From a bacterium (GTDB lineage: Bacteria > Sysuimicrobiota > Sysuimicrobiia > Sysuimicrobiales > Segetimicrobiaceae): DNA of 64,000 bases. Below the pieces are notes generated by a model, which was given only the letters and a program-made list of their open reading frames with translations, ran no database searches and was not told the DNA's origin. Shown here one piece after another: positions 23,822 to 26,467 of this stretch (position 1 is the stretch's first letter; every line of letters begins with the position of its first letter). The DNA lies in NCBI GenBank assembly GCA_035307765.1, contig DATGHU010000040.1:1-64000 (forward strand). Reading direction: 5' to 3'. The translations under genes were made by a program, and so were the position numbers.

Positions 23822-24394
23822 TTACGGGACGATGACCCGCCCCGCAATCAACCCCTCCACCGCCTCCCGCCAGACGGAGGGCCCTCTCTGCTCTCCGGGA
23901 AATCTCCCGCGGATGCGGCCGTCGGCACCGACAAAAAACGTCTCGGGGACCCCGGTCGTGCCGAAAAGACGGCCGACATCGCCATCGGGATCGCGCAGAT
24001 TGCGGTAGGTGATACCGAACTGTGTAAGGAACCGCCGGGCCGGCGAGGCAAGGTCTTGGGTGTCAATTCCGAGTACGATGACTCCCTTCGCCCGATACTC
24101 CGTCCAGATGCCTTCAAGCAGCGGGGCCTCCTCGCGGCACGGGACGCACCACGAGGCCCAAAAATTGACGATCACGGGATGACCGCGCAGGTCGGACAGC
24201 GAGACCGATCGACCGTCAAAGTCGACCAGGGTCACAGCGGGGACCAAGGGGGTATCTCCCCTGGCGAGCGCCTCCCCAATCTCGAGGGACCGCTGGTGGT
24301 GCACCACGGCCCAGGCGAGAACGCCCAGCACCGCTGCCACCGGGATGAGTAGGGCCGCCCGGACTCCCCAGGGTGACCGCACGGCAGGAGCCAT
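23822..24394 (-). CDS. TlpA/ResA-like membrane-anchored thioredoxin
   Basis: 190-aa thiol-disulfide oxidoreductase. One N-terminal transmembrane anchor (AALLIPVAAVLGVLAWAVV, about residues 13-31) precedes a thioredoxin domain with NFWASWCVPCREEAPLLE, active-site CVPC near residue 82-85, and a cis-Pro in GVPETFFV. The domain faces outside the membrane and probably reduces cysteine pairs, for example for c-type cytochrome maturation as in ResA/CcmG. No cytochrome genes are in the window. It converges with the beta-propeller and diverges from the RNA element and groEL. Confidence 0.88.
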   Translation of the reverse strand: MAPAVRSPWGVRAALLIPVAAVLGVLAWAVVHHQRSLEIGEALARGDTPLVPAVTLVDFDGRSVSLSDLRGHPVIVNFWASWCVPCREEAPLLEGIWTEYRAKGVIVLGIDTQDLASPARRFLTQFGITYRNLRDPDGDVGRLFGTTGVPETFFVGADGRIRGRFPGEQRGPSVWREAVEGLIAGRVIVP

Positions 24395-24458
24395 AGGTTA
24401 ATGGTACCAGAAAGCCCCTCCGCCCCCCTTCAGTTCTCAAATTGAGAGCAAACTGCTC

Positions 24459-24487
24459 TTGACTGGGTCGACGCTCCGTGGTACCGT
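24459..24487 (+). promoter_or_regulatory. promoter of the structured RNA
   Basis: TTGACT (24459-24464), 17-base spacer, TACCGT (24482-24487). The predicted transcription start (about 24494) coincides with the first base-paired position of the RNA. Confidence 0.6.
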
Positions 24488-24492
24488 AATTT

Positions 24493-24649
24493 CCCGTCTC
24501 ATAGAGCGGACTGCAAGGCTGGGGGCGCCGTCTCAAGTACTTGTGGCGGCCCAGCCCAAGGGCACGGACTTCTCGAGACGGGATGACCGACGGCTGCGAC
24601 AGCCCAGGACCGGACACTCTCCGTGCTGGGCGGCAGCCGTCTCAGTTTT
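24493..24649 (+). ncRNA. structured RNA with riboswitch-like terminator switch, class unknown
   Basis: Closing stem P1 CCCGTCTC (24493-24500) with GAGACGGG (24575-24582), 8 bp. Inside it lies an asymmetric loop of 16 and 18 bases, then a hairpin GGCTGGG (24517-24523) with CCCAGCC (24550-24556) continued by CGCC/GGCG. After P1 a 53-nt hairpin follows: GACGGCTGC (24589-24597) with GCAGCCGTC (24633-24641), GCCCAG with CTGGGC, CGGA with TCCG, then TCAGTTTT. CCGTCTC at 24637-24643 is also complementary to GAGACGG at 24575-24581, so P1 and the terminator compete. I checked it against the common riboswitch signatures I know and found no match; a small independent RNA is the alternative. Confidence 0.6.
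24589..24649 (+). terminator. long hairpin terminator of the structured RNA
   Basis: Three stacked stems (9, 6 and 4 bp) with a CACTC loop, followed by TCAGTTTT. Its 3' arm overlaps the alternative partner of P1. Confidence 0.7.
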
Positions 24650-24744
24650 CGCGATTACGAGAGATATCGAAAGAAATATCGAGTGCTAGCGCGATAAACA
24701 GCGGATTTATGCGGCAAAGCCCCTGCCGACCCCTCTTGATCCCC

Positions 24745-24773
24745 TTGAAAGGACGCTGACCACAGTGAAAAAT
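24745..24773 (+). promoter_or_regulatory. candidate groEL promoter
   Basis: TTGAAA (24745-24750), 17-base spacer, AAAAAT (24768-24773). The start point would fall at about 24780, directly before CIRCE. The -10 match is only 4 of 6. Confidence 0.45.
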
Positions 24774-24781
24774 GAGAGTAG

Positions 24782-24808
24782 TTAGCACTTGCCCATGGCG
24801 AGTGCTAA
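24782..24808. promoter_or_regulatory. CIRCE operator (HrcA binding site)
   Basis: TTAGCACTT-N9-GAGTGCTAA: 9-bp arms with 9-base spacer and one mismatch to the TTAGCACTC consensus. It lies 27 bases before groEL. HrcA repressor is expected to be encoded elsewhere in the genome. Confidence 0.95.
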
Positions 24809-24823
24809 ACTCCACAGAGTTGA

Positions 24824-26467
<1,644 letters not shown>

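What the first reader, a model, noticed from the sequence alone, without database searches (positions are those of the whole stretch)
24493..24649. Candidate new riboswitch or attenuator upstream of groEL
A promoter at 24459-24487 is followed at once by an 8-bp closing stem (24493-24500 with 24575-24582) enclosing a loop-and-hairpin domain of about 75 nt, then a 53-nt terminator hairpin. The 3' strand of the closing stem (GAGACGG) is also complementary to CCGTCTC in the terminator's 3' arm, giving two exclusive states, as in riboswitches. The internal loops (16 and 18 bases) are long enough for a binding pocket. I recognised none of the common classes. The message would run into the CIRCE-groEL region, or the RNA could act alone.
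Basis: partly seen in the sequence, partly recalled or inferred. Interest (0 to 1): 0.78.

Follow-up and report, generated by a model that had tools for sequence, protein, structure and literature searches.

The report
Phylum-wide structured small RNA beside groEL
The element upstream of groEL is not a switch for groEL but the gene of a small, strongly folded RNA of about 160 nucleotides with its own promoter, shared by most genomes of the uncultured phylum Sysuimicrobiota and matching no family in the Rfam library, so these bacteria appear to have an RNA component that nobody has described.

Summary
Rfam gives nothing, even at E=10. A covariance model finds full-length homologues in 31 of 43 genomes of the phylum and in none of 343 genomes outside it. 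All seven helices covary: 34 of 43 pairs have compensated changes, 191 doubly changed cells against 62 in shuffles. In 27 of 31 genomes the RNA cannot be a groEL leader: 18 have a convergent DUF881 gene between RNA and groEL, and in 9 the RNA points away from groEL. The groEL beside it has its own promoter and CIRCE. The proposed competing pair is not conserved. The promoter is conserved in nearly all main copies. Hence: a stand-alone, structured, trans-acting RNA, a new family and probably protein-binding. It is not 6S, SRP or a Ro/Y RNA. Function unproven; families f3 and f4 lack it, the slot there being occupied by other genes.

The parts
24459..24487 (+). Promoter of the RNA: -35 TTGACT, 17-nt spacer, -10 TACCGT (TGGTACCGT, extended -10 type)
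   Evidence: Same position in the homologues, TTGACA + 17-18 nt + TGCTA..T or TATAAT, ending 6-8 nt before the RNA; G011 has a degenerate -35, the three g2 paralogues lack it
24490..24649 (+). Predicted RNA, ~157-160 nt (start inferred from the promoter, end from the hairpin plus TTTT)
   Evidence: Covariance-model hit 24489-24654, full length, 158 bits with R1, 130 bits with R2
24492..24500 (+). P1, 5' strand (UCCCGUCUC)
   Evidence: Pairs with 24575-24583; 96% of cells paired, 4 pairs with changes on both sides
24504..24506 (+). P2, 5' strand (GAG), pairs with CUC 24572-24574
   Evidence: 99% of cells paired, 2 of 3 pairs with changes on both sides
24511..24514 (+). P3, 5' strand (CUGC), pairs with GCA 24562-24564; the outer C-C does not pair in the window
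   Evidence: All 4 pairs with changes on both sides across relatives
24517..24523 (+). P4, 5' strand (GGCUGGG), pairs with CCCAGCC 24550-24556
   Evidence: All 7 pairs with changes on both sides
24557..24560 (+). Conserved unpaired CAAG between P4 and P3
   Evidence: C, A, A, G at 97, 94, 91, 94% of 33 sequences, in an otherwise variable unpaired background
24575..24583 (+). P1, 3' strand (GAGACGGGA)
24589..24641 (+). Hairpin 2: lower stem 24589-24597/24633-24641, asymmetric internal loop GACA 24598-24601 facing G24632, upper stem from 24602/24631
   Evidence: Lower stem 100% of cells paired, 6 of 9 pairs with changes on both sides; loop consensus G-N-C-R facing G, the C and the facing G invariant in 33 of 33
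24646..24649 (+). Short U run after hairpin 2, possible intrinsic terminator
   Evidence: Longest U run 1 to 6 nt among homologues; no terminator called by the scan
24745..24773 (+). Separate groEL promoter-like site (TTGAAA-17-AAAAAT), outside the RNA
   Evidence: sequence kept in G001 and G004
24782..24808 (+). CIRCE operator of groEL (TTAGCACTT-N9-GAGTGCTAA), outside the RNA
   Evidence: Read in the sequence; kept in G001, G002, G004
24836..26467 (+). groEL (no groES seen beside it), neighbour
   Evidence: Pfam Cpn60_TCP1, E 4e-78; most genomes examined have two groEL genes
23822..24394 (-). TlpA/redoxin-like gene, divergent neighbour
   Evidence: Pfam AhpC-TSA and Redoxin

Best explanation
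The element is the gene of a stand-alone structured small RNA of about 160 nt that acts in trans. Shown by comparison: it has its own sigma-70-type promoter; it folds into domain 1 (P1-P2-P3-P4, a rod with short internal loops) and domain 2 (a long hairpin with an asymmetric G-N-C-R/G loop); it was inherited through the phylum Sysuimicrobiota. Inferred: the 3' hairpin with a short U run ends or protects the transcript, and the RNA works mainly by binding a protein through the few conserved loop motifs (CAAG between P3 and P4, G-N-C-R/G in hairpin 2), because helices are conserved and there is no conserved single-stranded seed. The partner is unknown; RNA polymerase, an Hfq-like protein or a ribosome-associated protein are candidates.
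For: Full-length homologues in 31 of 43 phylum genomes (22 of 28 of high quality) and 0 of 343 outside. Covariation: 34 of 43 pairs with compensated changes, 92.6% of cells paired against 79.4% shuffled and 40-51% for slid partners, 191 doubly changed cells against 62; RNAalifold on the same alignment recovers the helices, 28 of 36 pairs with double changes. Sequences not used to build R2 (G032, G015, G026 and the G010 paralogue) fit the structure. Promoter conserved in place. Neighbour gene and orientation vary: 18 of 31 convergent DUF881, 9 of 31 pointing away from groEL, 4 of 31 straight into groEL. Mean identity of paired positions 0.76, unpaired 0.57, with only CAAG and G-N-C/G islands conserved.
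Against: No expression data are at hand. The U run is weak or missing in several homologues, so termination is not proven. Protein binding is inferred, not shown. A5 and A6 were fitted to the model's structure, which inflates pairing; the plain MAFFT alignment of 8 sequences (A1) gave only 5 of 36 pairs with double changes. All main copies lie near groEL, which an independent RNA need not do.
Confidence: 0.62

Rival explanations
1. A base-pairing regulatory sRNA (Hfq type) that silences or activates mRNAs in trans through a short seed.
For: Own promoter and a hairpin plus U end are usual for such sRNAs. An Hfq-like domain is detected in 29 of 43 genomes; the families f3 and f4 lack both the RNA and a detectable Hfq-like domain.
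Against: No conserved unpaired stretch of 6 nt or more; unpaired positions are the least conserved. U tails are short. The co-absence in f3/f4 may be a single event in one clade.
Confidence: 0.2
2. A functional relative of 6S or Ms1 RNA that binds RNA polymerase.
For: Phylum-wide with a constitutive-looking promoter. Presence goes with detectable 6S across genomes (25 both, 9 neither, 6 and 3 discordant; Fisher p 0.001, not corrected for phylogeny). The three g2 genomes have no detectable 6S and a second copy of this RNA.
Against: No 6S-type open bubble: the interior is crossed by P2 and P3, both covarying. A separate 6S RNA exists in most genomes. The association rests on few independent lineages.
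Confidence: 0.12
3. Riboswitch or attenuator in the groEL leader.
For: In the window genus (4 genomes) the RNA lies directly upstream of groEL in the same orientation; the terminator-like hairpin could in principle be switched.
Against: 27 of 31 genomes have no such arrangement; groEL has its own promoter-like site and CIRCE behind the hairpin; the competing pair is not conserved.
Confidence: 0.04
4. A cis-acting leader whose target differs by family, for example of the CsoR-CopA copper operon in f2.
For: In all 9 f2 genomes the RNA points towards csoR and copA, with a DUF5666 gene between in several.
Against: In most f1 genomes and in f5 and f6 the next gene is convergent, its 3' end about 3-77 nt away, so there is no downstream target, yet the RNA is equally well conserved there.
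Confidence: 0.05

Closest known systems
6S RNA (RF00013)
   Same: Stand-alone structured RNA of similar length (6S model 187 positions), widespread within a phylum
   Different: No 6S match; two domains side by side instead of one rod with a central bubble; a separate 6S exists in most genomes
Orphan structured bacterial ncRNAs found by comparative genomics (as a kind)
   Same: Found by conservation and covariation; function unknown
   Different: No Rfam 15 family matches at E up to 10; not detected outside one phylum
Transcription-terminating riboswitches (as a kind)
   Same: Promoter, structured domain, terminator-like hairpin in a row
   Different: No constant downstream gene, no conserved alternative pairing

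Membership tests
Known Rfam 15 RNA family | Covariance-model match above or near the gathering score | tested here: not met
   None at this locus at gathering or at E up to 10 on 24400-24840
Riboswitch/attenuator | Lies in the leader of the gene it controls, same strand, conserved target | tested here: not met
   18 of 31 convergent gene next, 9 of 31 point away from groEL
Riboswitch/attenuator | Two mutually exclusive pairings conserved in relatives | tested here: not met
   P1 3' strand against hairpin 2 3' arm: mostly chance-level and different matches in relatives
Riboswitch/attenuator | Ligand binding | not testable with these tools
   Needs in-line probing or SHAPE with ligands
6S RNA | RF00013 match | tested here: not met
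   No match at this locus; the 6S candidate is at G000:C10:44167-44370, 40 bits, just under the cut-off
6S RNA | Single rod with large central bubble | tested here: not met
   Two domains; P2 and P3 cross the interior with covariation
6S/Ms1-type | Binds RNA polymerase | not testable with these tools
   Needs co-purification
Bacterial SRP RNA | RF00169 match at this locus | tested here: not met
   The genome's SRP RNA is elsewhere, G000:C34
Y RNA (Ro-associated) | Ro/TROVE protein in the genome | tested here: not met
   0 of 43 genomes
Hfq-dependent sRNA | Conserved single-stranded seed | tested here: not met
   No conserved unpaired run of 6 nt or more
Hfq-dependent sRNA | Hfq present in the genome | tested here: inconclusive
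   Hfq-like domain in 29 of 43 genomes, mostly weak and inside a long frame

The most novel reading that the evidence does not exclude
A phylum-specific housekeeping ribonucleoprotein RNA of a new class, working beside 6S and SRP RNA, with conserved CAAG and G-N-C-R/G receptors for a dedicated protein, and duplicated in the one genus where 6S is not detectable.
Probability: 0.25. Interest if true: 0.82.

Novelty: new variant of a known kind. Interest (0 to 1): 0.62.

Why it matters
Sysuimicrobiota are uncultured but common in soils and hot springs (PMC11604079). A strongly covarying RNA kept at one locus through most of a phylum, with its own promoter, implies a function worth keeping over very long times, and it appears undescribed: no Rfam match, and no mention of noncoding RNA in the paper that defines the phylum. 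The model gives a ready search query, and the natural absences (f3, f4) and duplications (g2) are comparisons for working out what it does.

Tried and rejected
Rfam at relaxed threshold: nothing. A pattern of hairpin 2 in the GTDB contigs: 95 hits; apart from records of the same phylum, 76 loci were rescored with the model and none gave a convincing full-length match (best 32.8 bits in Sulfuritalea, a 102-nt span against a 167-position model). 6S, SRP and Y-RNA identities. The competing-pair switch. A diverged copy beside groEL in f3/f4: unfiltered search negative, and the slot holds sequences that read as tRNAs or a membrane-protein gene in most (my reading, not run through ARAGORN).

Full report
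OBSERVATION. TTGACT-17-TACCGT at 24459-24487 is followed by a 9-bp stem, 24492-24500 with 24575-24583, and a 53-nt hairpin, 24589-24641, with TTTT at 24646-24649. The 168-nt stretch folds at -81.8 kcal/mol, z -3.4. The complementary strand gives z -3.5, so energy does not tell the strand. Rfam 15 gives no match at gathering score in the window apart from four tRNAs, and none at E up to 10 in 24400-24840.

HOMOLOGUES. blastn found the element in close relatives. Five sequences were aligned (A2) and made into a covariance model with a structure taken from single-sequence folds (R1). R1 found 28 of 43 genomes of the order, with matches across the whole model. The model rebuilt on 29 sequences (R2) found 31 of 43, which is the whole phylum as held here, and none of 343 genomes outside the phylum. 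Contig names of relatives (Terrabacteria group bacterium ANGP1; Bacillota bacterium Centralia MAGs) together with the taxonomy place the window most likely in Candidatus Segetimicrobiaceae, Sysuimicrobiota (PMC11604079).

STRUCTURE. On 33 sequences, 34 of 43 pairs show changes on both sides that keep the pair; 92.6% of cells pair; 191 cells carry double changes against 62 in shuffles; sliding the partners destroys the signal. RNAalifold on the same alignment recovers the helices, with 28 of 36 pairs doubly changed. Caution: this alignment was fitted to the model, and cells count sequences, not events. Against that, G032, G015, G026 and the G010 paralogue were not used to build R2 and fit it, G032 with a rewritten hairpin-2 stem. 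G015, the only f5 genome, lacks the usual P1 in the alignment. The U-G wobble at one P1 pair in 29 of 33 sequences supports the plus strand.

CONTEXT. All 31 main copies lie beside a groEL gene. In 18, the order is RNA, then a convergent DUF881 gene, then groEL. In the window genus (4) DUF881 is missing, so the RNA sits directly before groEL. In f2 (9) the RNA is on the far side and points away from groEL, towards csoR and copA. The RNA keeps its promoter throughout, with one degenerate -35 in G011. In the window groEL has its own promoter-like site and CIRCE behind the RNA. So the RNA is an independent transcription unit, and what lies downstream is not constant. In f3 and f4 the DUF881-groEL pair is kept but the RNA is not found, and the slot reads as other genes in most. 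The single f7 genome is 72% complete and also lacks a hit, so its absence is not established.

THE SWITCH. The pairing GAGACGG/CCGTCTC is a 7-bp match that shuffles reach 17% of the time. In relatives the longest match between these segments is mostly at chance level and involves other bases. The two interior loops contain P2 (GAG/CUC) and P3 (CNGC/GCNG), both covarying, so they are not open pockets.

WHAT IT MAY DO. Paired positions are conserved at 0.76, unpaired at 0.57. The conserved unpaired spots are CAAG between P4 and P3 and G-N-C-R facing G in hairpin 2, where the C and the facing G are invariant in 33 of 33. This fits a protein-binding RNA better than a seed-pairing sRNA; that step is inference. 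It is not the 6S or the SRP RNA, which are found elsewhere in these genomes, nor a Y RNA, as no Ro/TROVE protein was found. Detectable 6S, an Hfq-like domain and this RNA are all absent from f3/f4, and the three g2 genomes have no detectable 6S and a second copy of this RNA. These associations rest on very few independent lineages and are leads only.

VERDICT. A new RNA family of a known kind (stand-alone structured bacterial RNA), new by Rfam and by the papers searched. The riboswitch reading is rejected. Mechanism open, protein binding most likely.

Noticed in passing
G000:C4:26464-26625 (L218) and L219-L223: The Hfq-like domain of this phylum lies at the C-terminus of a long open frame (about 385 residues in the window's genome). 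In several genomes a Shine-Dalgarno-like GGAGG and a GTG or ATG stand in the frame just before the Hfq part, so a free Hfq could also be made.
   Followed up: partly
Families f3 and f4 (G013, G014, G019, G022, G025, G028, G031, G034): No detectable 6S RNA, Hfq-like domain or the new RNA in this group.
   Followed up: partly
G005:C119, G008:C32, G010:C35 (L152, L157, L159): Second copies of the RNA in genus g2 without the usual -35; the one in G008 is divergent from an hsp20 gene.
   Followed up: partly
G000:C10:44167-44370 (L109): A 6S RNA candidate of the window's genome, 40 bits, just under Rfam's cut-off.
   Followed up: no
Window 24656-24700: AT-rich stretch between the RNA and groEL with the words GAGATATCGAAAGAAATATCGAGTGCTAG; AAATATCGAG recurs in G001. 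Possible further operator, unexplained.
   Followed up: no
f2 genomes, e.g. L148, L150, L151: The RNA points into a csoR-copA copper operon, in several with a DUF5666 gene inserted between.
   Followed up: partly
Phylum genomes: Most genomes examined carry two groEL genes; one of them is the close match to the window's groEL, the other about 65-68% identical.
   Followed up: no
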